A program made the translations under genes and the position numbers. Shown piece by piece: positions 1-22,500 of a stretch of DNA of 64,000 bases. The DNA comes from Desulfovibrio mangrovi (GTDB lineage: Bacteria > Desulfobacterota > Desulfovibrionia > Desulfovibrionales > Desulfovibrionaceae), in assembly GCF_026230175.1 (NCBI RefSeq), contig NZ_CP104208.1, positions 310,001 through 374,000 on the forward strand. Reading direction: 5' to 3'. Position 1 is the first letter of the stretch, and each line of letters starts with the position of its first letter. The notes under the pieces were generated by a model. The model did no database searches. It saw nothing but the letters and a program-made list of their open reading frames with translations, and had not been told where the DNA came from.

Positions 1-1
1 G

Positions 2-580
2 TGGATGCTAAACCTTTTGAGAGATCATAATATTAGTCTTGCAGAGATCGCTGAGGCCCTGCTGATTAAAGGGACCTCTTTGCTTCATAAGTTTATTTCC
101 TTGAAACGCCTTCCTGAGTCTGTGGTGCCTTTGATTACGTTTGGAAGTGGTGTGGGAGTGATTTCGTTTTCAGCAGCTGTTGAGATTGCAAAATTGACAA
201 ACGTCGATGAAATGGAGGTGTTGGCGAGAGATGTTGTCACTAATTCTAGAACAAAAGGAGAAGTTGTTGCAATAGTTCAAAGATGTAGAAAGGGTGGCGT
301 GCCGTTGGAGGTGGCCATAGAAGAGATAGATCATATGCGTCCGGTTGTTGAAACTTACCATGTTTTCGTAGGACGCCTTGCTGAGGGAGATTGGGGTAAG
401 GAGAAGGATGTTTTGAGAAAGCAGCTTGCGGGTTTGTTTGGTGCAAAGAATGTCATTAGCGTGAGTATTGTTGGATGTCAGTTTTCTTTTGTTTTGGCTG
501 AGGAGGCTGCGAAGAGTCCAAGTGCAAAATATCTAAGATCTGAGTGTTTGGAAGGGTTTGTGTCCGGTCTGATTTCTTAG
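2..580 (+). CDS. ParB-like protein, 5' end outside the window
   Basis: The open frame runs in from the left edge, so the start and the N-terminal part, where a ParB/sulfiredoxin-type domain would sit, are not visible. The visible part begins with a helix-turn-helix like that of ParB/KorB proteins (ISLAEIAEALLIKGTSLLHK, then LPESVVPLI and the ALARDVV-like stretch LARDVVTNS), followed by about 90 residues I do not recognise. ParB-family proteins bind DNA and some are CTPases or nucleases; which applies here cannot be seen. It is the first visible gene of a tight plus-strand cluster with the metallo-beta-lactamase gene (11-base gap) and a small gene. Its base composition is more AT-rich than the neighbouring dnd genes. 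The family assignment is fairly firm, the function is open. Confidence 0.7.
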   Translation, partial: WMLNLLRDHNISLAEIAEALLIKGTSLLHKFISLKRLPESVVPLITFGSGVGVISFSAAVEIAKLTNVDEMEVLARDVVTNSRTKGEVVAIVQRCRKGGVPLEVAIEEIDHMRPVVETYHVFVGRLAEGDWGKEKDVLRKQLAGLFGAKNVISVSIVGCQFSFVLAEEAAKSPSAKYLRSECLEGFVSGLIS

Positions 581-591
581 TTGAGGAGTCT

Positions 592-1623
592 ATGTTGTTA
601 AACGTTGGTGTTGATGTAGACGGGTGTATTAATCTGGGAGACCGAGTCTGTTGTGATGGTTTTAATGCAGATTCATCTATTCGTATTCAGACGCATGCGC
701 ATTTAGATCACATGCATAATTTTGAAAAAAGCAAGGCTTTTCAAAAGATAATAATGTCAGCTGCAACCTATGAAATGCTTCTACCTGATCATCCTGATTT
801 GGAGTTTCGTAGGTCTCAAGTTGTCTGTTGTTCTACGAACGGCGCTATGAATAATGTTGACGGTGTAGCTGTATCGCTATTTTCTACTGGCCACATGTTG
901 GGAGGGGTGATGCCCCTGGTTAACTATGATGGTTCGTTTCTTCTCTACTCCTCAGACTTTTCATGGCCATTGCCGGGAGTGTCTCTGCCCAGAGTTGATT
1001 ATCTGATTGTTGATGCAACTTACGGTGAGCCAGGTAAAAATTTTCGTTTCTCTCATGAGGAGGTTGTTGAAAGCTTTTCTTCATTGATAAAAAGGTTGTC
1101 ACGAAAGGGAAATGTGTTGGTTGTTGGGCATAGGGGGAGAGTGGAATATGCTGTTTCAGTAATTTCTAAGAATTATACTATTCCGATAGTTTGTTCAAAA
1201 AGGATTTGCAAAACCCTTCATGTGTATAGGAAGTATCTTAACTTCTCCGGTAGGGTATATGAAATGGGGAGCGTGGAGGCTACCGAAGTGCTGTCTTCAG
1301 GAGGGGCTGTCGTATTTTGTACATCCAGAGAAAGGCTTGATGAGTATTGTGTAGATTTTAAGGATAAGGTTGAGTTGTCTTTATTCCATGGAAGTAAAAA
1401 AGAGTGTGTTACTTCAAATGGATCACAGCACTATGTGTCTTTTACGGATCATGCTGATTTTCAAGGGACTGTGTCTTTAATTGAATCTGTTTCACCAAAG
1501 GTTGTCATTGTTGACAGCTCGAGAGGCGATAAGACATCTGCTGCTAAGTTGTCTGAATATATTAGCCGAACTATGAATATTAAATCTGAGTTTATGCTTG
1601 GAGGTAAGCGTGTCGTTGTTTAG
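592..1623 (+). CDS. beta-CASP metallo-beta-lactamase fold nuclease-like protein
   Basis: This 343-residue protein has the metal-binding HxHxDH motif (THAHLDHMH), a GHMLGG motif, YSSDFSW and VDATYGEP. Near the C-terminus it has the SFTDHADFQG motif that marks the beta-CASP branch (CPSF73, Artemis/SNM1, RNase J relatives). Such enzymes cut DNA or RNA with two metal ions, and all the expected metal ligands appear present, so activity is plausible. The ATG at 592 was chosen because GAGG lies five bases before it; an upstream in-frame start at 544 would overlap the previous gene. The downstream small gene overlaps its last 14 bases, suggesting translational coupling. It converges on dndE. The DNA or RNA substrate is unknown. 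Confidence 0.82.
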   Translation: MLLNVGVDVDGCINLGDRVCCDGFNADSSIRIQTHAHLDHMHNFEKSKAFQKIIMSAATYEMLLPDHPDLEFRRSQVVCCSTNGAMNNVDGVAVSLFSTGHMLGGVMPLVNYDGSFLLYSSDFSWPLPGVSLPRVDYLIVDATYGEPGKNFRFSHEEVVESFSSLIKRLSRKGNVLVVGHRGRVEYAVSVISKNYTIPIVCSKRICKTLHVYRKYLNFSGRVYEMGSVEATEVLSSGGAVVFCTSRERLDEYCVDFKDKVELSLFHGSKKECVTSNGSQHYVSFTDHADFQGTVSLIESVSPKVVIVDSSRGDKTSAAKLSEYISRTMNIKSEFMLGGKRVVV

Positions 1624-1870
1624 TGATTTTCCTATTTCAGATTATTATAAAGGGTTTATTCGCGAGGCAAGGACTGTTAAAAATAGCGGAAGGTGGTGGA
1701 CAGCACTTTTGTTGATTCAAGATCCTAAGACGAACGAGAATTTTGTGGGCCTTTATAAATGGCAATTTGATGGTCATGTTTGGAAAACCCGAAAAAAGTT
1801 TGAAATTCGTGGAAGTAGCGATTTGAGGACAGTTATTGAAGTTTTAGAGGAGTATGAAAAGTTTATTTAA
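1610..1870 (+). CDS. small protein of unknown function coupled to the beta-CASP gene
   Basis: An 86-residue protein starting at GTG 1610, with GGAGG five bases upstream inside the end of the metallo-beta-lactamase gene. It is rich in aromatic residues (GRWWTALLLIQD, GLYKWQFDG, VWKTRKKFEIRG) and looks like a small beta-rich domain ending in an acidic helix. I do not recognise the family. The overlap with the upstream gene argues that it works with the beta-CASP and ParB-like proteins. Its stop overlaps the convergent dndE stop by eight bases. Confidence 0.6.
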   Translation: MSLFSDFPISDYYKGFIREARTVKNSGRWWTALLLIQDPKTNENFVGLYKWQFDGHVWKTRKKFEIRGSSDLRTVIEVLEEYEKFI

Positions 1871-2204
1871 ATAGGTGTATTGATTGTGCTATTGAGGTGG
1901 CTCCCCTGTTCATATGACGAATTAAAAGTTCGTCAAGCGAGCAGGTGGAGCCTTTCTTTTTTTTCCAAATGGCGAGCATAGCCAAAAAGCATGATTCATA
2001 TTCCCCAAACAGAGTGAATCTATTGATCTCGCGGCCTTTCTCTGCCTCTGAGACATCATTAGGTTCGGTGGGAAGTTCCAGAGACATGCAGAAGCCAATA
2101 CGGCAAAGAATGTTCGGGGTAATCCCTGTCCTGGCTTTCAGTGAGCGCAGTTTGTTGTCTGCATCTTTTGTGAAGGGTATGCGCTGAATGGTGAGCTCTT
2201 CCAT
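1863..2204 (-). CDS. dndE: DndE, DNA phosphorothioation protein
   Basis: A 113-residue protein starting at the ATG that overlaps the dndD stop by one base (TAATG). It carries the DndE-like segment RIPFTKDADNKLRSLKARTG near the N-terminus and is about the usual length for the family. DndE is one of the core proteins that place sulfur in the DNA backbone and is reported to bind nicked DNA. It is the last gene of dndBCDE here, as in many systems. No dndFGH restriction genes follow; the next genes are the convergent plus-strand ParB/beta-CASP module. Confidence 0.85.
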   Translation of the reverse strand: MEELTIQRIPFTKDADNKLRSLKARTGITPNILCRIGFCMSLELPTEPNDVSEAEKGREINRFTLFGEYESCFLAMLAIWKKKKGSTCSLDELLIRHMNRGATSIAQSIHLFK

Positions 2205-4207
2205 TATCCTCTCCAGAAATATTCGTTGGACACTTGAGTCCGGTTCTCGTCTGCGTTGTACCGAAGATGGTAGCTATGGGATACATTGGGGCTTAATTCC
2301 GCATACCATTCTTTATCAATCTCTGTATCAGTAGAGAGGATGATTACCTGCTCCGCTGCGCACGGGAAGTAGCTATGAATGAGCTTCCCCCGGTGTTCGC
2401 TGTCCAAGCGACCAAGTGGAGTGTCGATGATGATTGGCAATGAGCGGCCAGAAGTGATGGAAAGGCCCCATAGCATGGCCACAGCGTACATCTGTTTTTC
2501 CCCGGCGCTCAGATCCTCCTTGGGGAGTACATTTCCGTAGCGGTCTGCCAATGTCACTGCATATGTCACAGGATCGATATCAATATTGCGGATGAGGTCG
2601 CCCTTACGACTCAAGGCATTAAAGCGGTCAGCCACTGTTGTTCGCAGTTGTGCAATCTTTGCCGTGGTAAGACGATCCGCGTAGTCCTTCATAGCTTCTT
2701 GTATGCGATTCGCAAGAAGTATGCGCCTTTTTTCATCGGCCTTGCTATCGCTTTCTTCTAGGGCTCTCTTTAATTTTCGTTGCTCCAGAGTTAGGCGGTA
2801 TTCTAATGAGCGGAGCTCTTCTTCTTTCTTCTTTTGTTCCTGAAGGACCATACCAAGCCGTTGGTTATATGATCCCACTGCTTCTATCAGTGGCTGAATG
2901 GCTGCTTCTTCTGGGGCGCGAAGCAAATCTTGCTCCACGCGCTGAAGGCGGCGGGTCAGTTCTTCTTGCTTGTCGGACAACTCCGCAACCTTGGGACGCG
3001 ATTGGTTATTCGCAAGCTCAATCCAATGCAGAATCTGACTGGTAGCGGTGTCGGAAAAGCCAAAGAGCTCTTCAATATTGGGTTCAGGGGCAACCTCTAT
3101 TATGCGGTTATTAAATGCATTCTTAATTGATTCGAAGAGAGGAGTGCTTGTGAGCTCGCTTTGAGAAGATGCGAGCGTATCAAGAATTGTCTGACGCATG
3201 GATACAAGCTCATCTTTGAGGATGGTGCCCTTGCGGCTTTTTTGCTCCTCAACAAGCTGCTCTTTCAACTCTGCCGTGATGGTGGGACAGAAAGAAAAAG
3301 GGTAGAGCCCTTCACACTCTTCACGGACTGCTCGACGGATGGATTCAATTTGCTGCGCGAGTTTGATCTTCTCATCGAGCAGCGCATCACGCTGTTGGGA
3401 GAATATGTGGCCTTCGCGTTTAAGTCTCAACTCAAGGGCAGCGATTTCTGCCCGAATGCCATCCTGTTCAGTTCGGTTAGTAGCTAACTCTTCTCGTGTG
3501 ATGGTAATCTGTTGCTCTAACTCCGAGATTTTGACTTCTGCTTTACTAATGTCCTGTTGTAAATCCTTGCTGGCATTTTTGAGTGTCTCCCTCGATTTGT
3601 AGATGCTGAGGTCCGAAGAGAGACGTTCAACAATATCTAGTCCCAGCAGCGTCTTGACTGACTCTGCCAGTGCGGCGTTGCCATGGATATCATCCGCAAT
3701 ACTTTTGATTTTCTCGCCGTCAAAAAAGAACAGCGAAGAGAGACGCTCAGGGATGATCTCTTCAACGAATCCTTGCCAGTAATCAGGATTGACGCCACGT
3801 AGTTGGGTTCCGTTTTTTGTGATGGAAAGGCGTTCTATGACGCCTTTTCCGTTGCCGGGCATCCACTGGCGCGTGGCAATATAAGTGTTCTTTTCCCCAA
3901 GTGAAGTGTGTTCGAATTCAAGGGAAATAGATGCACTTTGAGGCTGGAGCAGTCCTTGGGGGGATCTGTGAATACGGTTCTTTAAAAAGGACTTGTATTC
4001 GGCTTCCGTAACCCGGTCGCCGAGAGCGGATTTGCCGTAGAGTACAACTCTGAAGGCATCAAAGAGGGTTGTTTTACCCGCACCATTGTTGCCTCCGAAG
4101 AGAACAACAGGTCGGAGCTTGCCATACTTCTCGCGAGGGTACAGGTCAAAGGATACCGTTCCGTTGTAAAGACCGTAATTATCCAGCGTTATTCTTTTCA
4201 GCAGCAT
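2204..4207 (-). CDS. dndD: DndD, SMC/Rad50-like ATPase of DNA phosphorothioation
   Basis: A 667-residue ATPase. Walker A is GGNNGAGKTT at residues 38-47. A long coiled-coil central region is rich in Glu, Leu, Gln and Arg. The ABC-type signature LSAGEKQM and Walker B LPIIIDTPLGRLDSEHR lie near the C-terminus. The layout is that of SMC/Rad50 proteins and DndD, which supplies ATPase activity, possibly linked to DNA nicking, for sulfur insertion. The start at 4207 lies 29 bases inside dndC, so the operon is translationally coupled. Confidence 0.92.
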   Translation of the reverse strand: MLLKRITLDNYGLYNGTVSFDLYPREKYGKLRPVVLFGGNNGAGKTTLFDAFRVVLYGKSALGDRVTEAEYKSFLKNRIHRSPQGLLQPQSASISLEFEHTSLGEKNTYIATRQWMPGNGKGVIERLSITKNGTQLRGVNPDYWQGFVEEIIPERLSSLFFFDGEKIKSIADDIHGNAALAESVKTLLGLDIVERLSSDLSIYKSRETLKNASKDLQQDISKAEVKISELEQQITITREELATNRTEQDGIRAEIAALELRLKREGHIFSQQRDALLDEKIKLAQQIESIRRAVREECEGLYPFSFCPTITAELKEQLVEEQKSRKGTILKDELVSMRQTILDTLASSQSELTSTPLFESIKNAFNNRIIEVAPEPNIEELFGFSDTATSQILHWIELANNQSRPKVAELSDKQEELTRRLQRVEQDLLRAPEEAAIQPLIEAVGSYNQRLGMVLQEQKKKEEELRSLEYRLTLEQRKLKRALEESDSKADEKRRILLANRIQEAMKDYADRLTTAKIAQLRTTVADRFNALSRKGDLIRNIDIDPVTYAVTLADRYGNVLPKEDLSAGEKQMYAVAMLWGLSITSGRSLPIIIDTPLGRLDSEHRGKLIHSYFPCAAEQVIILSTDTEIDKEWYAELSPNVSHSYHLRYNADENRTQVSNEYFWRG

Positions 4208-5681
4208 GCAGTATGTCTCCTACTCCGGTGTTCTCAAGTGAAGCTTCAAAGCCGATATCCTGGAATACTTCTTCACGGGTTCTCCAATCTTTGGAGAATA
4301 CGGAGTGGATATTATTGAAAATTTGGGAGCGCCTGCTCATGCCGTTATGGCGTTTTTCGACATCGAAAAGGTCTGTCAGCAAACCAAGGGGCAACTGATG
4401 CTCTTCGCAAACTTCTTTGAGAAGCTCCAATTCCGTTTTGCCCATGCCAGACCAATCATCGCGTGGAGCGTTGAAAGGTTCCCCTGTCTCAGTTTCAAAA
4501 ATTACTGGTAAGGAGTCGGCCCAGTCTGCCTCTTCGGTCCGCCATAACTGACGAATGCGAAGCAGTTCTTCTCGTTTAACCAATTCCAGTCTGCTATCGT
4601 TCTTCAGTTGGCGGACTTCCTGCTGGGTGCGCAATAGCTTCGTAAGAAGCTTCTTTCGGTACTCAAGAGTAAAGGGGCCCCAGACAAGAATCGTGTTGCC
4701 GTCTTTTCCTTCCTTGGTCAGTACTTGTCCTGTTCGGCGCCGGTGTTCTCGGTGCTGGAGCTTAAAGTCTCTTTCAAAGGTTATCATCAGATCGTCTCTG
4801 AACTTTAAAAGAGGAGCTAGCCACTTTTCGCCTTTTTCAATGAACGCTTCCATAGAGAGGTCGCGTTGGACAACTGTACATGTCCAGCAGCCGAATCGGC
4901 TGTTGCCAAATGTCTGTTCTGCTAATTCATCTTCGCCGTCGTCATCAGCTTTCTGGGCGTTGCGATAAAGTACTTCAAGTTGCGAATGATCGCCGCCCCA
5001 TGGGGGGGGGCAGTTGCGTAAGAAATCCCAGACATCTTCAGTGGACCATTCTTCAATGGGGGAGAAGACAAGAGCACTTGGTAGGTCCTTATGTTGGGAT
5101 AGATATTTTCCTACCATTTTACGTCCGACCCGTTTGCCGGTGTCGGTTACGCGCTCTTCTTGCATGCTGCCAGCTCGAGCTGAGCTTTCAGATTTTCTTA
5201 CCCCTAGCACAACCACCACTTCGCCATGTGAGGCGATTTGCTCTTTTATGAACCGGCTGGTTGGTTTGATCTTCATGCGATCGGTGCACCACCTGAAAGT
5301 GCGATACGGTGCGGGATAGCCCCTACCAATCATGTTTACCCAAAATGTCTCGTCGATGTCAGGGCAAACTGGGATGGCTTGAATCGGTAGCTCTTCAAGC
5401 TTTGCTGCTTGATTTAGTTGGTGAATTTTTTTGTGTAGGTACTCTTCGATGAGTGGCATTTCCACGAAAGTGTCAGAAGAAATGCTGTAGACCTTCTTGG
5501 TCCTTTGGTCTGGAGGAATTTGTGAGAGCGCAGTCCAAACCAGTTGAAGTACGCATGTGGAATCTTTCCCACCGCTAAAGCCGATAATCCACGGGCGGCC
5601 GTCAGCTAGGTATGTTTCTTTTATAAGTTCAATGAGATTTGCGTGGTCTTTGGGGGACGGATTACATTCTGCCTGCGACAT
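4179..5681 (-). CDS. dndC: DndC, PAPS-reductase-like sulfur transfer protein
   Basis: A 500-residue protein with the ATP-pyrophosphatase P-loop SGGKDS at residues 36-41, RTFRWCTDRMK, and a CxxC in RFGCWTCTVV. These cysteines would hold the iron-sulfur cluster known from DndC. The protein activates or transfers sulfur delivered by a cysteine desulfurase; no dndA is present, so a housekeeping IscS probably serves. It overlaps dndB by 20 bases and dndD by 29. A run of nine identical bases lies inside the coding region at 5002-5010 and could let the reading frame switch by slippage. Confidence 0.93.
   Translation of the reverse strand: MSQAECNPSPKDHANLIELIKETYLADGRPWIIGFSGGKDSTCVLQLVWTALSQIPPDQRTKKVYSISSDTFVEMPLIEEYLHKKIHQLNQAAKLEELPIQAIPVCPDIDETFWVNMIGRGYPAPYRTFRWCTDRMKIKPTSRFIKEQIASHGEVVVVLGVRKSESSARAGSMQEERVTDTGKRVGRKMVGKYLSQHKDLPSALVFSPIEEWSTEDVWDFLRNCPPPWGGDHSQLEVLYRNAQKADDDGEDELAEQTFGNSRFGCWTCTVVQRDLSMEAFIEKGEKWLAPLLKFRDDLMITFERDFKLQHREHRRRTGQVLTKEGKDGNTILVWGPFTLEYRKKLLTKLLRTQQEVRQLKNDSRLELVKREELLRIRQLWRTEEADWADSLPVIFETETGEPFNAPRDDWSGMGKTELELLKEVCEEHQLPLGLLTDLFDVEKRHNGMSRRSQIFNNIHSVFSKDWRTREEVFQDIGFEASLENTGVGDILHAAEKNNAG
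5002..5010. repeat. nine-base homopolymer inside dndC
   Basis: Nine G on the plus strand (nine C in the dndC coding strand) encode part of NCPPPWGG. The reading frame is intact in this sequence. Gain or loss of one base would truncate DndC and stop phosphorothioation. Confidence 0.9.
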
Positions 5682-6768
5682 AGCTATCTTCTACTTCTTG
5701 TTCTTTAGGGTCGAGCGGGAGGTTTAGGTGGCGCTTGATAGCATTTGCCGTAAGCACAACATTATTTTTGGCCTTACTGAGTCTGCCGCCAATAAGAGCA
5801 CGGCCTTCCCAATAGCTGAGATTGCGACGGGACCAGTCCACATCTCTAAGCTTCGTCATTTCTTTTTGCCATGAGTCTGGGTACCGTGTGATCAAGCTGG
5901 AGCCAGCAATCGCAAGAGCTTGCAAAGCGATACCGTGGGCATGGATGAATTCAGCGCGAAGTTCGTGGGCTGAGACTTTGCTTTGCTTGCATAACAGCCA
6001 GTCTGGGATGCAGTGAGACACTTCTTTCCAAAATTCATGGGCAAGTTGCTCTTCTTTTCTGGAAACATTGTCATTTTTCCCTTTTTGAAGAAGCTGCTTG
6101 GTAGCCTGGTATATACTGCTAAGGGTAAACAGTTTTCGCGAGCGGTTGGAGATAGTCGTTTTCTCTTTTTCTGTCATCCCAATAAATACGGGAACGTTGT
6201 CGGCGAGTTTTTTGGCAAGTCGAGAAATGGGTTCTCGATGATCATACAGAATGCCTAAGGAACGAGTTGTGCGAACGGCATATCTGTTGAGGTCGGCAAA
6301 CATTTGCTGGCTCCGCTCCAACCCGGCATCGACAAAGAAAACAACAGAAATACTTTCTTCGCCGAGTTCTGGGTATTCCTGAATAGCCTCTTCGATTGCA
6401 GCTCTTCGGTGCTGGCCGTCGTTGATGAGAAAACGTGCTTCCATGGGGATGCTTAACACCCCAAGTTTTCGACCAATGTTATCTTCCCCATTGGATGTGA
6501 AGAAAACTTCTCCGTCAATCGATACTGTTAGCGAGGAAAATGCATAGGAATTTTTGTTTTCAATAATATATCGGGCAAGGGCAGGAATTCTTTGCTTGTT
6601 GATACTCCGTTGCGCCCTAAGCTCTGGAGGAAGGTCGTCTTCAACGAATTTGAACAGTCGAGGAACAAGTTTCAGGGGGCACATTGTGACATAGTATTCA
6701 CGCCCAGCTTGGATGCCTCGGATCGCCGGAAACGAGTATGTGAATTCGGTGGAAGGAGTTTTCTTCAT
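5662..6768 (-). CDS. dndB: DndB, DGQHR-domain regulator of the dnd operon
   Basis: Starting at ATG 6768 the protein has 368 residues. The DGQHRRAAIEEA motif at about residues 117-128 defines the DGQHR/DndB family. DndB is known to repress or tune dnd transcription and modification level rather than catalyse sulfur insertion. A TTG start at 6831 is possible, but that stretch carries three copies of a repeated motif and a promoter-like sequence, so I place the start downstream. First gene of dndBCDE; its stop overlaps dndC by 20 bases. Confidence 0.9.
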   Translation of the reverse strand: MKKTPSTEFTYSFPAIRGIQAGREYYVTMCPLKLVPRLFKFVEDDLPPELRAQRSINKQRIPALARYIIENKNSYAFSSLTVSIDGEVFFTSNGEDNIGRKLGVLSIPMEARFLINDGQHRRAAIEEAIQEYPELGEESISVVFFVDAGLERSQQMFADLNRYAVRTTRSLGILYDHREPISRLAKKLADNVPVFIGMTEKEKTTISNRSRKLFTLSSIYQATKQLLQKGKNDNVSRKEEQLAHEFWKEVSHCIPDWLLCKQSKVSAHELRAEFIHAHGIALQALAIAGSSLITRYPDSWQKEMTKLRDVDWSRRNLSYWEGRALIGGRLSKAKNNVVLTANAIKRHLNLPLDPKEQEVEDSYVAGRM

Positions 6769-6792
6769 GAACGGAAGATGATTAAATTGAAG

Positions 6793-6831
6793 GTGGAAGT
6801 CAATATAATTCACTTCCAAATTCACTTCCAA
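6793..6831 (-). promoter_or_regulatory. putative dnd promoter with tandem and inverted operator repeats
   Basis: Two exact 12-base copies of ATTCACTTCCAA stand head to tail at 6808-6819 and 6820-6831. A third, inverted copy with one mismatch follows (GGAAGTCAAT, about 6795-6804), giving a near-palindrome across 6795-6817. On the minus strand TTGGAA, an 18-base spacer and TATATT could be the -35 and -10 boxes, lying inside the repeats. It sits just upstream of dndB and is a good candidate for autoregulation by DndB. Confidence 0.6.
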
Positions 6832-6841
6832 TTGGCGATTG

Positions 6842-7204
6842 CTAATGATTCTCTCTTGGTAGATTTTTTAGAACCTTCTCCCCCAACACCCTCTTCCCCA
6901 ACTCTGTCAGCACATATCTGTGCTGCCGTGGCCCGAGCTCCACGATCTTGATGTAGCCCTTGGCGCGGAGCGATTCGCATGAGCGGTAGGGCATGCCTGG
7001 TGGAACATCCAGCTGCAGGCGGATGAGGTTGCGGTACTGGTCCAGAAGCTGAACAGCCCGCTGGATCTTGGCGGGAGGCCATGGGCGGGTGCGCTCGAAC
7101 TCAAGCATGAATTCGGGCTCGCCGTGGCCTTGAAGGCCTTTGCGGATGGAGATGCCGTGCCGTTGCAGGTGCCGGACCGGATCCCAGAAGACAGAGTCGC
7201 GCAT
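6842..7204 (-). CDS. winged-helix-like protein at the prophage A boundary
   Basis: A 120-residue protein whose C-terminal half looks like a winged helix (PYRSCESLRAKGYIKIVE, then RQHRYVLTELGKRVL). No catalytic motif is seen. It lies between the strong terminator that ends prophage A late transcription and the dnd promoter, so it may be the last gene of the prophage side or belong to the defence locus; its stop is only 11 bases from the dnd repeats. A regulatory role is possible but unproven. Confidence 0.55.
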   Translation of the reverse strand: MRDSVFWDPVRHLQRHGISIRKGLQGHGEPEFMLEFERTRPWPPAKIQRAVQLLDQYRNLIRLQLDVPPGMPYRSCESLRAKGYIKIVELGPRQHRYVLTELGKRVLGEKVLKNLPRENH

Positions 7205-7549: not shown

Positions 7550-8129
7550 TGTTGACCTCCGGTAGTGCATAGATGGGGTTGATGGCCTGAATGGCAGCAA
7601 CAGCCTCGGCATCGTCCACGATAGCGGCAGTGGACTCCAGCGCGTCCTGATAGGCAAGGCGCTGGCCAACTACATGACCGGATATTGTCACCCATGCTTC
7701 GCGGTTTGCAATGATTCGCTGGGCCAGCATTTCGGGAGCCATGCCACGGGCTCCCGCGATGGCCCTGATCAGTGGAGCTGGGGCTGCGGGGTCTGCGGAA
7801 AGGGCTGTGGCCTCTTGCCACTGCTGGTCCCATGATGCGATCTCGGTGGGGCCATACTCACTGCGCAAAGGGCTAAGAACGGCCTCAGCCCTGTCTCGAA
7901 TTTCTGTCTGCATTGCGGTAAAAATCACTGCCCTATCAGGAGGAGGTGGGGGAGGCGGCTCAACAGCAATGGGACGGCCCTTAGTATCCAGTTTGATCAA
8001 CTGCCCACTGTCACGCGCTGCCTGCAGATGCAGTTGCTCTTCCAGCGTAATCTCAACGGCATCTGCGGGGATCGGATGTATACCCTCCAGAAGAAAAACT
8101 GCTGTACCAACACAAAAATAGCGTCGCAT
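7542..8129 (-). CDS. tail fibre assembly protein (DUF4376-like)
   Basis: A 195-residue protein starting at ATG 8129. A poly-proline stretch (PPPPPPP) separates an N-terminal part from a region with AMQTEIRDRAEAVLSPLR and SWDQQWQEA, which resembles DUF4376-type chaperones found directly behind phage tail fibre genes. It would help the fibre upstream to fold or trimerise. A longer start at 8276 would run deep into the fibre gene and was not chosen. Confidence 0.7.
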   Translation of the reverse strand: MRRYFCVGTAVFLLEGIHPIPADAVEITLEEQLHLQAARDSGQLIKLDTKGRPIAVEPPPPPPPDRAVIFTAMQTEIRDRAEAVLSPLRSEYGPTEIASWDQQWQEATALSADPAAPAPLIRAIAGARGMAPEMLAQRIIANREAWVTISGHVVGQRLAYQDALESTAAIVDDAEAVAAIQAINPIYALPEVNNA

Positions 8130-8131
8130 CG

Positions 8132-9664
8132 TTACCTCCCAAATGCGTAATAGTGCGCTTGCACAGTGATAGACTGCGCAGTGTCTTTGTCCGCAACGAG
8201 GGTCATGCCCGACAATCCGACATCGCGAACATTTGTGCCGATAACGGACGACAACGAGGCATCCCATATGTGCCACTCGCCATGTAGCGTCTTATTCGGA
8301 AATGGGATGGGGAAGATAATCGCAAGAGAGCTGTCCCCGCTGGTCGGGAATGAAACAGTCCCAATTTGCTCAATGATACCATCCGGGCGTTGCCACGCCC
8401 TGTCAGGAACCAGTGTCACCCATTCGCTCCTGTCCACCTTGTTCCCGTTGATCTCAGCGACCAGAGCAGCCAGCGCCAGCATGTCCACTTCTGCGGCATT
8501 CGTCGGCACATCGGCCACCTTGATGCAGGGCAGCAGATAGGAGGTCTTGGGGCGGTTTTCGTCTGCGGTGGGGACAACGCGGGAAGCGTCGAAGCTAAAG
8601 CCCCTGCTCGGACCTGTTACACCAGCAGCTTCTTGCCCCGAGATGTAGGACGCTCGTATAGCCCCCAAACCTTCGGGGGGGTTGAGTCCTGTAGCGGCTG
8701 CGCCTTCCCATTCACCGGTGATATTGCGGATCGCATCTCCGGCCCAGTCCCCAGCGGCCTTGCCCTCAATACCAGCCTGTGCAGCAGCCCAATAGTGCCG
8801 ATAGCACGGCAGAATGATGTGGGTGTCTGTCAGAGCATAGCGACCGCAGGAGCCTTCATTCGCTGCTGCTGCAGCATCCCAAGCTTCTTCGGTCGCAAGA
8901 TAGCCGCCATCGTTCAGCACTCGCGCCACGAGCTGCGGGTAAACGGTGCGCAAAAACTTCTGCTTCACGTTCACGGCCACCGAGCCGGGATCCGGCTTGC
9001 CGGTACTCGGGAAGTGCAGGGTGCCCACGGGCATTCCGCCCACACTGCCCCACGCAAGGGAGCCGTCCTGTTGCCTGATGAGCACCTGCCCCGGTTCGCC
9101 GCCTGCAGGTATCGTCTGGTGCGGGTCGTCCGTATCCTCAATGTGGTTTGCAAGAGCCTGAAAGGCTGCACCGTGAGCGGTGGGGCTATCGTTATGCGTT
9201 TCCATGGCCCGATCCACGAACTCTCGCGTGGCTGTGACAACGGACGGATCGATGGACAGCTTGATGGTGGAAGCGTTGCTGATCGTCAGTACGGCGCGAA
9301 TGCACAGCTCCTTGCCCACGCCGCTGTCCAGCAGGGGTTTGTAGGTGGCAGGGTAGCCACCGATGGCGAAAAGGTCGCCATCGGCATCATACATGCCAAT
9401 CTCGCGCACGGTGAAGCCGCCCACGTCCTGTGGCACAACCACTTCCACCACGGTCCAGCTGGGGTTCTGGGCATGGATGTAAATGGAATTCACAGGGCGC
9501 TTGTGCACCTCATGCACCAGCGCTGTCATGGCCTCGCTGGGCACAATGTCGCTGCCGTTGCCGTCGCCCAGCGCGAACTCGGCAATCTGCACAGGCGTGC
9601 CGTTCTGTGCCGCGGCAAGCTTGGCTTTCCCTTTCTCAGTCAGAATGGTGTAGTAATTGGGCAC
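8132..9664 (-). CDS. tail fibre protein, P2 gpH-like
   Basis: A 510-residue protein starting at a GTG with GGAGG upstream. The N-terminal 150 residues (NYYTILTEKGKAKLAAAQ, then FTVREIGMYDADGDLFAIGG) match the baseplate-attachment domain of P2-like tail fibres. The rest contains a tail-collar-like segment (VGTLHFPSTGKPDPG) and a variable C-terminus, which should be the receptor-binding end. It follows gpI, as in P2, and is followed by its assembly protein. Confidence 0.88.
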   Translation of the reverse strand: MPNYYTILTEKGKAKLAAAQNGTPVQIAEFALGDGNGSDIVPSEAMTALVHEVHKRPVNSIYIHAQNPSWTVVEVVVPQDVGGFTVREIGMYDADGDLFAIGGYPATYKPLLDSGVGKELCIRAVLTISNASTIKLSIDPSVVTATREFVDRAMETHNDSPTAHGAAFQALANHIEDTDDPHQTIPAGGEPGQVLIRQQDGSLAWGSVGGMPVGTLHFPSTGKPDPGSVAVNVKQKFLRTVYPQLVARVLNDGGYLATEEAWDAAAAANEGSCGRYALTDTHIILPCYRHYWAAAQAGIEGKAAGDWAGDAIRNITGEWEGAAATGLNPPEGLGAIRASYISGQEAAGVTGPSRGFSFDASRVVPTADENRPKTSYLLPCIKVADVPTNAAEVDMLALAALVAEINGNKVDRSEWVTLVPDRAWQRPDGIIEQIGTVSFPTSGDSSLAIIFPIPFPNKTLHGEWHIWDASLSSVIGTNVRDVGLSGMTLVADKDTAQSITVQAHYYAFGR

Positions 9665-9678
9665 GGGTTCCTCCGTGG

Positions 9679-10332
9679 CTACAAGGGGTTAATGTAGGAA
9701 ATTTCTGCGCTCTGATAGCCGACGCCAAAGCGGATGTCGGCAGGGGGGGCATCCGGCGCTACAGGCTCCCACGGGTACACGGTCACAAGCTCGCCGCCGG
9801 AGATCTGCGCACCCGCGTATGGGGAGCCGAATCCGGTCAGGAACACGGTTATGCCGTCCGGATGCTGGCTGTGGCGTTTGGTGGCCGCCACAACCGTGTC
9901 GATCTGATCATAGAGCGGCTGGTCGAGCCCCTGATCCGTCACCTCCACTTCTACGCGGAAGGTGCCGGGCGCACCGCCGTATTCAAACCACTGGCGCACC
10001 GTGCCATTGCCGTAGAGCGTGGCAAGCGCATCTTCCACGCAATAGACGGTGCCGTGGTGCATGCGCCAGATCAGCGCCTTGCGGATGAGATCGCGCTTCT
10101 TGGCAACAGGCAGAGTGTCCGTCCAGAACAGGACGCGGAATTGCTTTGCCAGCAGCGAGAGCATAGGCTCCTGCAGCACGTCCACGCGGGAGAGGATGGC
10201 AGGCACGGGAATGTCTGCAATGATGCGGACGCATTCCATGTCGACGGCTTCTGCACATGCGAGCAGTGTGGGATCCTTGTCGATGGAATCCGGCAGCAGC
10301 TGGACAAGGCGTATTTCGCGGACATTTGCCAT
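9679..10332 (-). CDS. baseplate/tail protein I (P2 gpI-like)
   Basis: A 217-residue protein. RLVQLLPDSIDKDPTLLACAEA at the N-terminus and KRDLIRKALIWRMHHGTVYCVED in the middle are characteristic of P2 gpI. It forms part of the baseplate wedge between gpJ and the fibre. Its start overlaps the baseplate J gene by one base, in the P2 order W-J-I-H. Confidence 0.9.
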   Translation of the reverse strand: MANVREIRLVQLLPDSIDKDPTLLACAEAVDMECVRIIADIPVPAILSRVDVLQEPMLSLLAKQFRVLFWTDTLPVAKKRDLIRKALIWRMHHGTVYCVEDALATLYGNGTVRQWFEYGGAPGTFRVEVEVTDQGLDQPLYDQIDTVVAATKRHSQHPDGITVFLTGFGSPYAGAQISGGELVTVYPWEPVAPDAPPADIRFGVGYQSAEISYINPL

Positions 10333-11429
10333 TATGCTGCCTCCAGTCCGCCAAAGGCGATAACCGGCGCTCCGTCAGGAACAGCCAGCGCCTGCTCGGA
10401 CACCACGGCAAAAACGGGTTGGGTCAGCTCCACGCGCTTGGCTCCGGCGGCGCGGATGCGGTAGATGAGCTCGCTGGGATTCACGTCCCGCCCCAGCTTG
10501 GCGCGCTGCCATGCAATGAAGTCATCAACGGCCTTGGCAACGGCTTCTTCCGTCTGGGCCTGTGTGACAGGATCGTCCGCGTACCAGACAACAGAGATGG
10601 TATAGGGCTGTTCCACAGGCGCGGCCACCGTTACGCGGTCGCCCATGGGGCGGTGCTTCCTGTCGGTGAGAATGGTCTCTACAAGCGTCAGCACCTCGGC
10701 ACCCGGCAGCAGGCCTCCGCGCATGAGCGGGTAGACCTCGATCTCGCAGGGTGCAGGGGAGAGCACCGCCACATCGAGGATGTCCCTGTGTGCTGTCATG
10801 GCCCAATACCTGTATGCATCGGCAGGACCGGCAGAGGAAAAGCGGCCCGGTGCCAGCAGAATGCGCTCGCGCAGATGCTCGTCATCTTCCGCGTCTGCTC
10901 CGCCCATGCTGGTGGTTGTATTGCTCACGCCCGTTACGCCGGATATCGGATCGGTCAGCCGGGCAATCTGGCCTGCCGTGAAGCCGTTGCCCTTGGTGCC
11001 GGTAACGGTGCAGGTTGCGGCCACGTCCATGCTGGTTGTTCCGGCAGGCACGGCGGCATCCGCATCGGTGGCAAAGAGCAGCGTGCCGTCCGGTGTAGCG
11101 CGGGTTCCGGCGGGGATGACAATGCCGCCTGCATCGGGATCCACGGCAAAGCGCAGGGTAACCCCTGCTGCTTCCGGAGGCAGGCGGTGCGTATCCACAA
11201 AGGCACCGAGGCCTTCCAAATAGGGGCCTTCCGCATACTGCACCAGATTCATGCGGGCAGAGTGGTCCTGCTCCTGCCGCAACAGGGCGTGCTCCATGGC
11301 GACGGATTCCATGAACAGGCGCTCCGGCGCTCCGGGATAGAGCTTGGTGCCGGTAATGGCCTCGTAGTTGCCAATTATCCGTGCTTCAATGGCTGTGGGG
11401 TCGGTTTCAACAAATTGAAGCTTTGTCAT
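10332..11429 (-). CDS. baseplate assembly protein J
   Basis: A 365-residue gpJ family protein. It begins LQFVETDPTAIEARIIGNYE and carries the typical GVSNTTTSMGGADAEDDEHLRERI segment in two parts around residues 190-215. It is a baseplate wedge component that links the tail hub to the fibres. Length, order and overlaps match P2-type contractile tails. Confidence 0.92.
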   Translation of the reverse strand: MTKLQFVETDPTAIEARIIGNYEAITGTKLYPGAPERLFMESVAMEHALLRQEQDHSARMNLVQYAEGPYLEGLGAFVDTHRLPPEAAGVTLRFAVDPDAGGIVIPAGTRATPDGTLLFATDADAAVPAGTTSMDVAATCTVTGTKGNGFTAGQIARLTDPISGVTGVSNTTTSMGGADAEDDEHLRERILLAPGRFSSAGPADAYRYWAMTAHRDILDVAVLSPAPCEIEVYPLMRGGLLPGAEVLTLVETILTDRKHRPMGDRVTVAAPVEQPYTISVVWYADDPVTQAQTEEAVAKAVDDFIAWQRAKLGRDVNPSELIYRIRAAGAKRVELTQPVFAVVSEQALAVPDGAPVIAFGGLEAA

Positions 11430-11432
11430 AAG

Positions 11433-11753
11433 CTAGGCTCCCTGAATGCTGATGGTCACAAGGGGATACAAGCGTCCTTCCACGGCATCGTCCGGCTTGT
11501 CGGCAAAGGATACGGATACCACCTGCAGGCGGGGTTCCTGTGCCTGCAGCTCGGCGATGATCTCGCCGGTGTATTCGGCCATGGCCTCCGGCAGGGGCCT
11601 GTCCAGAAAGCGCATGCGCACGCCGAAGGTGCGGTCAAGCGGCACGGTGCCCTTGGTTGTGCCAAGGATGTTGCGGGCGTTCTGCAGAATTTCCGCAACG
11701 CCGGTGGCTCCTATGATCTGGCGGGTGGTTTTGCGCATATCGATGAGGAACAT
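11433..11753 (-). CDS. baseplate protein W (gp25-like)
   Basis: A 106-residue protein of the gpW/gp25 family (TFGVRMRFLDRPLPEAM). ATG 11753 overlaps the upstream stop as TGATG, which decides the start over an upstream TTG. It is a small wedge protein that triggers sheath assembly. Confidence 0.87.
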   Translation of the reverse strand: MFLIDMRKTTRQIIGATGVAEILQNARNILGTTKGTVPLDRTFGVRMRFLDRPLPEAMAEYTGEIIAELQAQEPRLQVVSVSFADKPDDAVEGRLYPLVTISIQGA

Positions 11754-12637
11754 CAGCAATACTCCTTCAGGCTTACGGACAGGTCTGCCGCCATGAGAAC
11801 ACCCTTGGGGCCGTGTGTCCGTTCGGCGACATCCACATCAACCAGTACAAAGGTGCCGAGGTTGCGCCCGCCGATAACAAGCGGATAGGCCTTGCCGGAT
11901 TCCTGCACGGACTCCATCGCTGCAATACGCTGGGCAGGGGCGGAGAACGCGGACACAAGGCGGATGCGAAAGCTCACTTCCCACAGCGACACGCCTTGGA
12001 ACTGCAGCTTGGGCTTGGCGTTCTGCACCGCATGCTCGGCAAAGCGGGCGCTGCGCTTGCGGGAAAGGTCGTGCAGGGTATGCACCGTCTCGCGGGAAAC
12101 GGTGAAGGCGACAGGACCGAAGCTGCCGATGTTCCCGCCCGTGGCCTTGGGGGTATCCTCCGTGGTGCGGGTGGGCCCCTCCGGAACAGGCAGCGCGGGC
12201 GGCGTTGTCTGTGTCGTGTTGTCCTCCAGCACGTCGGTCATGTCTTCGGCAATGGCCGTTTCGGTCTTGTCCGCAGCAATGCCGCGTGCAATGCAGTCTG
12301 CCAGCACGCCGCGCAACTCATCATCCTGCCAGAGCGACCAGCCAGCAGGGCCTATGCCGTCGGCATACCGGCTCCTCAGTGCGAGCTGCACTGCCCGTTC
12401 CGCAGTTGTGCCGCTGCCCGGCGCAGCCGCCTTCAGCAGTCCGGCCACCTCGGAGGCATCGCCGGAAAGGGCGCTATATTCGCGGTCCATCATGCGTGCG
12501 AAGGCGTCCAGCCCAACCGCCTGCAGGGAGGTGTTCTTCTCGCTGGCAATGGACTCGCACACGCTGAGAACGCCGGAGCGGCATCGCCCGTTCGCAAATA
12601 GTTCGTTGATCATTCTGGAGCGCAATATGCTGCTCAT
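11753..12637 (-). CDS. tail protein with C-terminal gpU-like domain
   Basis: A 294-residue protein starting at ATG 12637, which overlaps the upstream stop as ATGA. The C-terminal 130 residues (FGPVAFTVSRETVHTLHDL, KRSARFAEHAVQNAKPKLQF, VSLWEVSFRIRL) look like P2 tail protein U. The N-terminal 160 residues carry no recognised domain and are joined by a Thr/Pro-rich linker. P2 gpU itself is only about the length of the C-terminal part, so this seems to be a fusion. A role in tail completion is likely. Confidence 0.65.
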   Translation of the reverse strand: MSSILRSRMINELFANGRCRSGVLSVCESIASEKNTSLQAVGLDAFARMMDREYSALSGDASEVAGLLKAAAPGSGTTAERAVQLALRSRYADGIGPAGWSLWQDDELRGVLADCIARGIAADKTETAIAEDMTDVLEDNTTQTTPPALPVPEGPTRTTEDTPKATGGNIGSFGPVAFTVSRETVHTLHDLSRKRSARFAEHAVQNAKPKLQFQGVSLWEVSFRIRLVSAFSAPAQRIAAMESVQESGKAYPLVIGGRNLGTFVLVDVDVAERTHGPKGVLMAADLSVSLKEYC

Positions 12638-13308
12638 TTCGGTTTCCCCGTCTCGCCGCAGGTCGGGCAAACATGGGTGTGGTTCACCAGCGAAATGCCG
12701 CTGGCCACAACATCATTCTGCGGGTTGGTGTAGTTGCCGGCCTTATGTTCCATGTCTCCGTTCAGCTGCCATGTGTTGGGCGCATCCGCGCTGCCTGCAG
12801 TCATGGGGCCGAGGTAATTGATCTGCCCACCCTGCACGGTAACCACCGGCGCTTGCAGACGCACATGGGTTCCGGAACTGGCAGAAATGTCTCCCGTGGC
12901 CGTTATCTCCACAGCCCCCTTCACCGAGGCGGTGAGCTTGTGGAGCTTGCGGTCATATTCGATCACGGTGCCGTCTGCGAAGGTCCAGTGCGCCTTGTCA
13001 CGGGTGCCGACCGGGGGCAGATCCGTGGCGGAATAGAACGACCCCAGCACAAAGCCCTGCTCCTGCCCGTATGGCAGGAACAGACAGAGCACATGCTCGC
13101 CCACATCGGGCAGCACGGAGTTCTTGTCCTTGTGCGTCTTGCGCTGGATCACGCGCAGGTCATAGGTCTGCATGTTGTCGGCATCGGGCAGAGTTACGCG
13201 GCAGGTGCCTGCCGCATCGTTCACGCTGGCAACCGTGCCCACGCGCACCAGCTGGCGAAGTATGGCCTCCAGTCCGCCGAGCCGTTCCAGATATTCCTGC
13301 AGCATCAT
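12634..13308 (-). CDS. baseplate spike protein V
   Basis: A 224-residue protein of the P2 gpV/gp45 type. An OB-like N-terminal domain (VGTVASVNDAAGTCRVTLP) is followed by beta-helical repeats such as ASSGTHVRLQAPVVTVQGG. The C-terminus ends with a Cys pair (HVCPTCGETG), which could bind a metal at the spike tip. It should be the membrane-piercing spike of the contractile tail. Confidence 0.85.
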   Translation of the reverse strand: MMLQEYLERLGGLEAILRQLVRVGTVASVNDAAGTCRVTLPDADNMQTYDLRVIQRKTHKDKNSVLPDVGEHVLCLFLPYGQEQGFVLGSFYSATDLPPVGTRDKAHWTFADGTVIEYDRKLHKLTASVKGAVEITATGDISASSGTHVRLQAPVVTVQGGQINYLGPMTAGSADAPNTWQLNGDMEHKAGNYTNPQNDVVASGISLVNHTHVCPTCGETGKPK

Positions 13309-13314
13309 TCCCCC

Positions 13315-14337
13315 TTACCAGTCCATGGTCCGGCGAACGGAAAGCGCGGTGGAGTAGCCGCTGTCGTCCACGGTGTGCCGCGACTGCTCTATGAAATATT
13401 TCCCATCCAGCCAGCCGAAGCCGGAAAGGCCGCAGACAGACCCGCCGATGAAGCGAGGGTTGCCCATGGTTTCGATATCGCCGCTCGTCTCCAGCTTGTT
13501 CTTGCGGCGCAGCTCGGTCTTTGCGCGTGCTTCAGCCGCGGCAAGGCTCTCCACGCGGTCGGAGATCTTGAGGGTTTGTCCGGACTCCGGCGCATCGGGC
13601 GGCGTGTAGGTGTATTCCCGCGTCACGTTGGCGGCGGCATCATGATAGGTGACCGTGCAGGCGCTGTAGATGTCCGCAAGGCTGTCGCGCAGGCGCAGGC
13701 GCTTCAGCTCACCGCCGGTGCGCGAGATAGTCCCGGCTGCAGGTTTGGCGTCCTGCGTCTTTTCATCCATCATCACCAGCTGACCGGAGTAGACCTTGAA
13801 GGCCTTGCCGTGTGACTTGGCAAGCCGCGTAAGCAGGGCCGCGTCCGACTCTTCACGCTGATCCAGACGGGCGAGGGAAACATCGTTGCCGCCAAAGCGG
13901 TGATTGAAGCCCTGTGCACCGGCAATCTCCGAAAGCACACGGGAAAGGGTGGTGGCCTCCCATGCCTTGGTTTTCTTCTCGCGGCGCAGGGAACTGCTCA
14001 CCATGCTGGAGATGCCCTTGAGGGAGAGCTTGTCGCCGCCTTCGCCATATTCATATTCCAGCTCGTCGACTTCGAAGGTGCCGCAACGCAGCCGGGTGTT
14101 GTCGCCTTCCCGCTGCCAATTCTCCACAATGAGCGTGGCCTCCAGCTTGTCGCCTTTGTTCAACTTCCACGAACCACGAAACAGGCCGTCCCTGTCCTCA
14201 AGGCGTAGCTCTATGCTGTCCGCCTGTGAGGATTGCGCATTGTCTTCCCACGTGGCGGATTCGAGATAGGGCGCAAGGGCGGCGCTCACGTTCTTTCCCC
14301 GGCAGAGGATCTCGAATCGGGCGGTGCGGGTGCGCAT
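13315..14337 (-). CDS. tail hub protein, P2 gpD-like late control D family
   Basis: A 340-residue protein starting at ATG 14337 with GGAGG upstream. LRCGTFEVDELEYEY, KAWEATTLSRVLSEIAGAQG and the C-terminal GWLDGKYFIEQSRHTV fit the gpD family, which forms the baseplate hub that holds spike V. It lies directly between gpX and gpV genes, as expected. Confidence 0.88.
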   Translation of the reverse strand: MRTRTARFEILCRGKNVSAALAPYLESATWEDNAQSSQADSIELRLEDRDGLFRGSWKLNKGDKLEATLIVENWQREGDNTRLRCGTFEVDELEYEYGEGGDKLSLKGISSMVSSSLRREKKTKAWEATTLSRVLSEIAGAQGFNHRFGGNDVSLARLDQREESDAALLTRLAKSHGKAFKVYSGQLVMMDEKTQDAKPAAGTISRTGGELKRLRLRDSLADIYSACTVTYHDAAANVTREYTYTPPDAPESGQTLKISDRVESLAAAEARAKTELRRKNKLETSGDIETMGNPRFIGGSVCGLSGFGWLDGKYFIEQSRHTVDDSGYSTALSVRRTMDW

Positions 14338-14339
14338 GC

Positions 14340-14543
14340 CTAGTCCTCCCACGGTGCTTTGACCGTTGTGGTAACAGCGGGCAGATCCGGCACGGTGAGC
14401 CGCTCGCCGCCCTCAAAGAATGCCGTGCCGCGATACTGCGGGTTGGCGTCCGTCAGGCGCTCGAACAGGCGCTCATCTCCCCAGAGGGTACGGGCAATGG
14501 AATCCAGCGATTCACCGGACTGGCAGATATAGGTGCTAGGCAA
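14340..14543 (-). CDS. tail protein X (LysM-like)
   Basis: A 67-residue protein starting at TTG 14543, eight bases inside the tape measure gene. YICQSGESLDSIARTLWGDE is the LysM-like core of P2 gpX proteins, which link tape measure and hub. Small but in the right place. Confidence 0.85.
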   Translation of the reverse strand: MPSTYICQSGESLDSIARTLWGDERLFERLTDANPQYRGTAFFEGGERLTVPDLPAVTTTVKAPWED

Positions 14544-16851: not shown

Positions 16852-16870
16852 ATTGCCTCTATTGACTGTA

Positions 16871-16925
16871 CCTGCATGGCGACCTACTGTAATAGCGTAT
16901 CAACTATTGGAGATCGCCATGCAGG
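16871..16925. repeat. 15-base inverted repeat over a start codon
   Basis: Arms 16871-16885 (CCTGCATGGCGACCT) and 16911-16925 (AGATCGCCATGCAGG) are complementary with one mismatch and a 25-base spacer. The right arm contains the start codon of the plus-strand gene at 16919 and ends close to the tape measure start on the other strand. In RNA it could hide the start codon; in DNA it could be an operator. Confidence 0.85.
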
Positions 16926-17552: not shown

Positions 17553-17555
17553 CTG

Positions 17556-18080: not shown

Positions 18081-18082
18081 GC

Positions 18083-19342: not shown

Positions 19343-19345
19343 GGC

Positions 19346-22442: not shown

Positions 22443-22475
22443 GCGTTTCTCCTAGCGCCGCCTGTTTGAGATGGC

Positions 22476-22495
22476 GGGGTCGGTTTCCCGACCCC
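22476..22495. repeat. GNRA-capped hairpin between capsid accessory and lysis genes
   Basis: On the minus strand GGGGTCGG-GAAA-CCGACCCC is a perfect eight-pair stem with a GAAA tetraloop. No T run follows, so it looks more like an mRNA-stabilising or attenuating structure than a simple terminator. Confidence 0.75.
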
Positions 22496-22500
22496 GTCGG

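What the first reader, a model, noticed from the sequence alone, without database searches (positions are those of the whole stretch)
2..2204. ParB-like / beta-CASP nuclease / small-protein module facing a dnd operon that lacks dndFGH
Seen: three tightly packed plus-strand genes (ParB-type HTH, full beta-CASP metal site, small aromatic protein) converge on dndE with an eight-base overlap, and no dndFGH genes are in view. Known: phosphorothioation is usually paired with restriction genes such as DndFGH, SspE or PbeABCD. Inference: the module could read the phosphorothioate mark and cut unmodified DNA or RNA, a restriction partner I do not know as described. It could also be an unrelated neighbour in a defence island, and the left edge may hide further genes.
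Basis: partly seen in the sequence, partly recalled or inferred. Interest (0 to 1): 0.8.

Follow-up and report, generated by a model that had tools for sequence, protein, structure and literature searches.

The report
Prophage sulfur-DNA cassette with ParB–β-CASP partner
A virus dormant in a bacterial chromosome carries genes that put sulfur into the DNA backbone, set tail to tail with an otherwise unseen four-gene group that pairs a DNA-clamp-type protein with a predicted nuclease, in a slot where related viruses keep anti-virus systems, so the group is a plausible but untested new cutting partner for sulfur-marked DNA.

Summary
The genes are real, but there are four, not three. dndE, D, C and B are confirmed by family models. 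Queries for DndF, DndH, PbeA and the DndI/SspE N-terminal domain find nothing in the one-contig genome.

The set is cargo of a 45-kb prophage at tRNA-Leu(caa). A sister prophage (nine blocks, 80–97% identical) has the same 9.6-kb slot filled by PD-Lambda-1 and other genes. Two more distant family prophages carry dnd cores there with other companions (PbeA/PbeC; a DndE–FtsK fusion). So the module sits in a defence slot and, in one relative, exactly where a Pbe-type partner sits.

Against coupling: the pairing was seen once; no close relative of the four proteins turned up in 88 loci with DndB relatives, and the β-CASP is in 1 of 288 family genomes (this one). The small protein has relatives near Pbe or DpdA genes in two haloarchaeal plasmids. 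Verdict: likely a new effector variant; PT-dependence is inference.

The parts
1..580 (+). 3' part of gene 2 of the module (230 aa in all, ATG at window -109): ParB-HTH-like protein without a recognisable NTPase domain
   Evidence: ORF; no convincing family hit; weak ParB-profile match of residues 7-117
592..1623 (+). gene 3: beta-CASP-type metallo-hydrolase, 343 aa (predicted nuclease)
   Evidence: TIGR04122 8e-10 (38 bits, cut-off 325), RMMBL 0.002 (18.4 bits, cut-off 21.6); CPSF73-type PDB sequences, best five E 2e-8 to 5e-7; metal motifs
1610..1870 (+). gene 4: small protein, 86 aa from GTG 1610 (90 aa from TTG 1598), overlapping gene 3
   Evidence: ORF; relatives in two haloarchaeal plasmids
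1863..2204 (-). dndE, convergent with gene 4, 8-base overlap
   Evidence: TIGR03184 75.5 bits, Pfam DndE 4e-20
2204..4207 (-). dndD
   Evidence: TIGR03185 545 bits
4179..5681 (-). dndC
   Evidence: TIGR03183 478 bits
5662..6768 (-). dndB (from its ATG; the longest ORF begins at 6831)
   Evidence: TIGR03233 515 bits; alignment of relatives
1..6874 (.). the part inside the window of the 9.6-kb variable slot (window -2712..6874) of prophage A
   Evidence: alignment with the sister prophage of G143, which has other genes here
6842..7204 (-). winged-helix-like gene (by eye), first backbone gene right of the slot
   Evidence: 98% identical protein in G143; PadR 0.003, below cut-off
37611..37668 (-). 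copy of the 3' end of tRNA-Leu(caa): border between prophage A and tandem prophage B
   Evidence: blastn of the fragments and ARAGORN

Best explanation
The 9.6-kb slot is a prophage-borne defence cassette. dndBCDE (with a host cysteine desulfurase, assumed) marks host and prophage DNA with phosphorothioate, and the four-gene operon on the other strand is its effector arm. Proposed working, inferred: the ParB-fold protein, an NTP-gated DNA clamp without a ParA, together with the ParB-HTH-like protein binds or slides on DNA; phosphorothioate changes its NTP cycle, as in SspE and DndI where a ParB-superfamily NTPase domain gates an HNH nuclease; on unmarked incoming DNA the clamp recruits or releases the beta-CASP hydrolase, which cuts; the small protein is an adaptor or brake. 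Shown: genes, order, slot, lack of the tested known partners. Inferred: nuclease activity, its substrate, PT sensing, coupling to dnd.
For: Slot equals defence slot: in G143's sister prophage it holds PD-Lambda-1 (8e-117) and no match to any of the dnd or module proteins; prophage A also carries a DarT/DarG pair elsewhere. Same architecture in G106's related prophage: repressor-like gene - PbeA (1105 bits)/PbeC-like (87 bits) on + converging on dndEDCB on - before the tail genes. A third prophage (G074) has DndC, Sp-DndD, a DndD-type ATPase and a DndE-FtsK fusion in the slot. Of 39 genome contigs dnd loci held with >= 20 kb, 27 have a DndFGH or PbeA match (E 1e-8; PbeA matches may include other helicases); over all 80 loci 38; none in 122 kb around this one, nor DndF, DndH, PbeA or GmrSD_N in the genome. 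The small protein's two plasmid relatives lie behind PbeA, PbeC and one more gene on the same strand, and about 5 kb from a DpdA gene. The module is orphan as a partition system: best ParA match in prophage A has E 0.39. ParB-superfamily NTPase plus nuclease is the design of DndI and SspE (PMC11662687, passages seen).
Against: Single instance: no relatives of the four proteins by tblastn beside any of 88 other DndB loci, profiles at best E 0.01. Module (36-44% GC) and dnd (45-49%) differ in composition, and both from seven backbone genes (59-61%; the repressor-like gene has 52%), so they may have come separately; in G106 partner and dnd are both low (34-44%). Separate strands, no shared operon. 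Two further cargo genes (232 and 163 aa) share the slot and could be the partner. dndBCDE without dndFGH is known (P. fluorescens pf0-1, PMC8569181 passage), and 12 of the 39 long loci showed neither DndFGH nor PbeA. Structure predictions were too poor to use.
Confidence: 0.42

Rival explanations
1. Independent neighbour: the four-gene module is a stand-alone defence or exclusion cassette of the prophage that happens to share the slot with dnd; it senses something other than phosphorothioate.
For: The slot is a hotspot with mixed cargo; GC content of module and dnd differ; opposite strands; no second co-occurrence.
Against: In G106 the same convergent place is filled by a Pbe-type partner, and dnd here would have none of the tested partners.
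Confidence: 0.33
2. The dnd operon is solitary and serves the phage itself, for example by protecting phage DNA or changing repressor binding; the module serves prophage maintenance or lysogeny control (ParB-like DNA binding plus RNA processing by the beta-CASP enzyme).
For: beta-CASP enzymes of the closest solved structures are RNA-processing factors by name; PT alters repressor binding of phage SW1 (PMC8569181 abstract passage); some ParB-fold fusion proteins are enriched in prophages (PMC12704722 passage).
Against: No ParA found in the prophage; the prophage is integrated at a tRNA gene, so needs no plasmid-type partition; the sister prophage lives without module and dnd.
Confidence: 0.15
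3. The module is a toxin-antitoxin-like or abortive unit: the beta-CASP enzyme is a host-killing RNase or DNase held back by the ParB-like proteins or the small protein.
For: Standalone nucleases at the borders of dnd loci, sometimes on the other strand, have been proposed as suicide effectors (PMC10853773 section 17, read); prophage A holds another toxin pair (DarT/DarG).
Against: No toxicity data; ParB-fold proteins are not known antitoxins (recalled).
Confidence: 0.1

Closest known systems
IscS-DndBCDE-DndI and SspABCD-SspE
   Same: dnd or ssp modification plus an effector that joins a ParB-superfamily NTPase domain to a nuclease (PMC11662687, abstract and passages).
   Different: There one protein, DUF262/GmrSD_N plus HNH; here separate genes, a canonical ParB_N domain and a beta-CASP hydrolase; no GmrSD_N match in the genome.
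dndBCDE with a PbeA/PbeC (CxC ABC-ATPase, HKD-helicase) partner
   Same: Same slot, orientation and convergence on dndE in a related prophage; the small protein has a relative behind PbeA/PbeC genes in Natrinema.
   Different: No PbeA match in this genome.
Other nucleases linked to Dnd (HKD, HNH, REase, URI, HEPN, PIN)
   Same: Nuclease genes at the border of a dnd locus, sometimes on the opposite strand (PMC10853773 section 17, read).
   Different: That section names no MBL/beta-CASP nuclease; 'beta-lactamase' and 'CASP' do not occur in the main text, and the 'mbl' hits in the 12 of 14 places shown are inside other words. Supplements not seen.
Ligase-associated DNA exonuclease TIGR04122 / CPSF73-like beta-CASP enzymes
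   Same: MBL and beta-CASP motifs; best family match.
   Different: 38 bits against a cut-off of 325; motif C histidine missing; company of ParB-like proteins.
P2/P4-type prophage defence hotspots (PMC9122126, start of abstract in the search listing)
   Same: Interchangeable defence cargo at a fixed place of a temperate phage.
   Different: Different phages; cargo here is dnd, which DefenseFinder found 'almost never' on prophages (PMC9090908, passage).

Membership tests
Dnd phosphorothioate modification system | DndB, DndC, DndD, DndE together | tested here: met
   All four over NCBIfam cut-offs
Dnd phosphorothioate modification system | DNA really phosphorothioated; DndA or IscS partner | not testable with these tools
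   No dndA in the operon as read from the ORFs; a desulfurase elsewhere was not searched for
DndFGH restriction | DndF, DndG, DndH | tested here: not met
   DndH and DndF of the same-genus G160 find nothing in G000; neither DndF, G nor H in 122 kb around
Pbe (CxC) partner | PbeA HKD-helicase | tested here: not met
   None in G000; found in G106, the query's own genome
DndI/SspE effectors | GmrSD_N (DUF262) domain | tested here: not met
   PF03235 not found in G000; 8 of 14 control genomes positive
ParABS partition | ParA gene and LG-R/K-GL motif | tested here: not met
   Four ParA queries (three partial), best E 0.39 in prophage A; no motif in the ParB-fold protein, but 6 of 7 plasmid ParBs compared also lack it
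ParB-CTPase fold | Box I, II, III motifs | tested here: met
   ParB_N 1.2e-16; GLMHPI at 46, GQRR at 66, ENLLR at 102; nucleotide bound not testable
beta-CASP metallo-hydrolases | HxHxDH, H, D, motif A, motif B | tested here: met
RNA-type beta-CASP | histidine at motif C (motif lore recalled) | tested here: not met
   PKVVIVDSSRG has no histidine where two relatives have one; exact column uncertain
TIGR04122 ligase-associated exonuclease | score over the curated cut-off | tested here: not met
   38 vs 325 bits
Conserved dnd-linked system | recurrence beside dnd in other genomes | tested here: not met
   0 of 88 loci by tblastn; loci of 3-21 kb, 39 of the 80 genome-contig loci with 20 kb or more

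The most novel reading that the evidence does not exclude
A phage-borne phosphorothioate restriction system of a new type: a ParB-family NTP-gated clamp and an HTH partner read the sulfur mark and steer a beta-CASP nuclease to unmarked DNA of competing phages, carried in a temperate-phage slot in which dnd cores are combined with interchangeable effector arms.
Probability: 0.33. Interest if true: 0.85.

Novelty: new variant of a known kind. Interest (0 to 1): 0.62.

Why it matters
Two things. If the module is the partner, phosphorothioate restriction gains a new reader-nuclease design (free ParB clamp plus beta-CASP enzyme), testable in a laboratory strain. Independently of that, three related prophages carry dnd cores in one slot with three different companions, whereas the literature says that Dnd is almost never found on prophages (PMC9090908, passage) and that dnd and prophages are negatively correlated (PMC8569181, passages). 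This makes it directly testable whether temperate phages use DNA sulfur marks to keep out competitors.

Tried and rejected
Single-sequence scans of viral contigs with the beta-CASP, the 230-aa and the 90-aa protein and alignment scans with the small-protein and beta-CASP alignments gave no relatives; plasmid and phage tblastn of the beta-CASP gave none (E 1e-3), of the 230-aa protein none. Single-protein scans use exact 8-residue patterns and would miss relatives below high identity. L004 and L005, the two phylum hits, look like generic beta-CASP enzymes; no ParB was noticed by eye among their neighbours in stretches of under 4 kb. AlphaFold models: pLDDT 47 (window part of the 230-aa protein) and 34 (beta-CASP); no fold search was run on them. 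A plain partition system was rejected (no ParA found, integrated prophage). The 21-bp repeat first taken as the attachment site has only two copies; the tRNA-Leu 3' ends are the better borders. The resemblance of the 90-aa protein to a ~95-aa family seen in seven of the ten loci read (E 6e-6 to 0.004) was not followed further. Phage-collection hits of the 90-aa protein at E 0.6-1 (108 records) were taken as chance. PADLOC hits of the ParB-fold protein to MTase_II and PD-Lambda-5_A (E 1e-4 to 6e-3) cover only the ParB_N part and were not followed.
Full report
1. What is there. The window is 310001-374000 of an unnamed 3.95-Mb genome in one contig, G000. I fetched the 18 kb to its left (L002; window coordinate = L002 coordinate minus 18000). 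On the + strand four genes are tightly packed: a 277-aa protein with a full ParB_N domain (L002:17065-17898 = window -935..-102; Pfam 1.2e-16, TIGR00180 3e-23), a 230-aa protein (ATG at window -109, stop 580; its ATG overlaps the previous gene), a 343-aa beta-CASP-type protein (592-1623) and an 86-90-aa protein (1598/1610-1870) whose end overlaps that of dndE by 8 bases. dndE, dndD, dndC and dndB follow on the - strand, all over the curated cut-offs. So the finding's trio is a quartet whose first member was cut off. A consensus scan found no promoter-like site just before the ParB gene and no excess of sites (5 found, 6.1 expected).

2. The proteins. The ParB-fold protein has the three nucleotide boxes (GLMHPI, GQRR, ENLLR). 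Of eight annotated plasmid relatives, four follow a gene annotated ParA, three an 'AAA family ATPase', one another gene (two more records, have no annotation there); in prophage A four ParA queries gave at best E 0.39. The 230-aa protein has no convincing hit in four libraries. A profile of nine ParBs aligns to its residues 7-117 where ParB's helix-turn-helix region lies, P = 0.006, hhalign probability 6%; 0 of 200 shuffles (best 24.3 against 25.9) and none of ten other proteins of the locus reached its score, and it does not align to the neighbouring ParB by BLASTP. This is weak but in the expected register. The beta-CASP protein keeps HxHxDH, the third-motif H, the fourth-motif D, motif A D and motif B H; the motif C histidine of two bacterial relatives is not conserved. 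CPSF73-type enzymes are the closest solved structures by sequence; TIGR04122 scores 38 bits against a cut-off of 325. That a missing motif C histidine goes with DNA-acting members is recalled, and weak.

3. It is prophage cargo. The 3' end of tRNA-Leu(caa) occurs at genome 302319-302372, 347611-347668 and in the complete tRNA gene 389609-389695: two tandem prophages. Prophage A (window -7682..37668) holds an integrase, a repressor-like gene, the module, dnd, then tail, portal, terminase and primase genes; integrase, portal and terminase are borne out by annotated phage records, the other labels are mine by eye. In 285 family genomes 55 have its terminase at E 1e-60. G143, same genus, has a sister prophage, at the same tRNA, collinear in nine blocks (80.4-97.1% identity) that jumps from window -2713 to 6875. 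The 9.6-kb slot there holds other genes, among the five scanned PD-Lambda-1 (8e-117), a GH3-like protein and an SDH-type protease; none of the dnd, module or two further cargo proteins matches there at E 0.01, while integrase, repressor-like and winged-helix genes are 97-98% identical. Smaller stretches also fail to align (for example 7283-8735, 27327-28471, 31263-33830). The last holds a DarT/DarG pair.

4. Relatives of the slot. G106 (other genus) has a related prophage (terminase 53%, portal 58%, primase-like 41% identity; integrase beside tRNA-Arg(tct)) with a repressor-like gene, PbeA and a PbeC-like ATPase on + and dndEDCB on -, then tail genes. G074 (genus of G106) has DndC, Sp-DndD, a DndD-type ATPase and a DndE-FtsK fusion in the slot; the DndC ORF is short (385 aa) and Sp-DndD a separate ORF. 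Of six relatives examined, the other five (G691, G120, G170, G056, G092; G170 and G056 only in part) showed no dnd match. So dnd cores were seen in 3 of 4 dissected slots, each with another companion; G000 and G106 were chosen because they have dnd, G143 and G074 by likeness of the terminase, so this is no frequency.

5. Is it the restriction partner? For: position; no DndF, DndH, PbeA or GmrSD_N in the genome; 27 of 39 long dnd loci have a DndFGH or PbeA match, this one has none. The small protein's plasmid relatives (one record at E 0.003, pairwise 2e-10; a second record found through the first) lie on the same strand behind PbeA, PbeC and one more gene in Natrinema and about 5 kb from DpdA and 11 kb from QueC in Natronosalvus, both DNA-modification settings. 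Against: no second copy of the pairing. tblastn of eight slot and flank proteins against 88 loci with a DndB relative (80 from genome contigs, the best of 148; 7 from relatives, one of them, L020, below the DndB cut-off; 1 viral contig, L021, which repeats part of the G106 prophage) at E 0.05 found only the repressor-like gene in L015. 85 of the 88 also hold DndC, D or E. Profiles of the small protein, beta-CASP and ParB found nothing convincing in the same loci (best ParB-profile match E 0.01 in L089). The beta-CASP was found only in G000 itself among 247 order and 288 family genomes; in 395 phylum genomes two more, generic, relatives appeared; these samples overlap. Module and dnd differ in GC (36-44 vs 45-49%) and both from seven backbone genes (59-61%).

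6. Mechanism. Best supported: dnd marks, the module is an effector arm. The inference that a ParB-fold NTPase senses the mark rests on DndI and SspE, where a ParB-superfamily domain does so (PMC11662687, passages).

7. Known or new. The Dnd survey PMC10853773 (abstract, sections 17 and 24 read, term search) names in section 17 HKD, HNH, REase, URI, HEPN and PIN nucleases, no beta-CASP; its supplements were not seen. Paper searches with ParB/MBL/beta-CASP and defence or modification terms showed no such system among the papers listed (7 of 7, 1 of 1, 15 of 62, 12 of 32), judged by title and start of abstract. Dnd is called almost never found on prophages (PMC9090908 passage) and negatively correlated with prophages (PMC8569181 passages); searches for dnd on prophages led to a lone DndC-like gene in a Sinorhizobium prophage (PMC12429752 passages). 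Filed as a new variant of a known kind.

Noticed in passing
window 31940-33771: DarT (PF14487 2e-20) and macro-domain DarG (PADLOC 5e-58) pair in prophage A, in a stretch that does not align with the sister prophage of G143.
   Followed up: partly
L165:12745-17715 (G074): Prophage operon DndC - Sp-DndD - DndD-type ATPase - DndE fused to an FtsK/SpoIIIE ATPase, no DndB ORF seen; the last protein matches SspH by its FtsK part.
   Followed up: partly
L106:14977-15606 and L102:11698-12381: Haloarchaeal plasmid proteins with two tandem copies of the small protein's domain, one behind PbeA/PbeC genes, the other between DpdA and QueC genes.
   Followed up: partly
G000:C1:775133-775345 (L117) and L108-L111, L114, L115: A ~95-aa family, one copy in this genome, weakly like the small protein (E 6e-6 to 0.004).
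   Followed up: no
G143:C13:273914-283483 (L162, L163): The slot of the sister prophage: PD-Lambda-1, an 803-aa GH3-like protein, an SDH-type protease and unknowns.
   Followed up: partly
L002:15370-16851: Two further cargo genes of the slot, 232 aa (phrog_3989 1e-27) and 163 aa (phrog_31886 2e-13), of unknown function; either could belong to the cassette.
   Followed up: no
window 37668-64000 and on to genome 389663: Second, tandem prophage B at the same tRNA-Leu(caa), integrase about 50% identical to that of prophage A.
   Followed up: partly
window 27381-28268: 295-aa protein with a borderline ion-channel match (PF07885 1e-4, 22.3 bits, cut-off 22.5) between portal and terminase genes, in a stretch that does not align with G143.
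   Followed up: no
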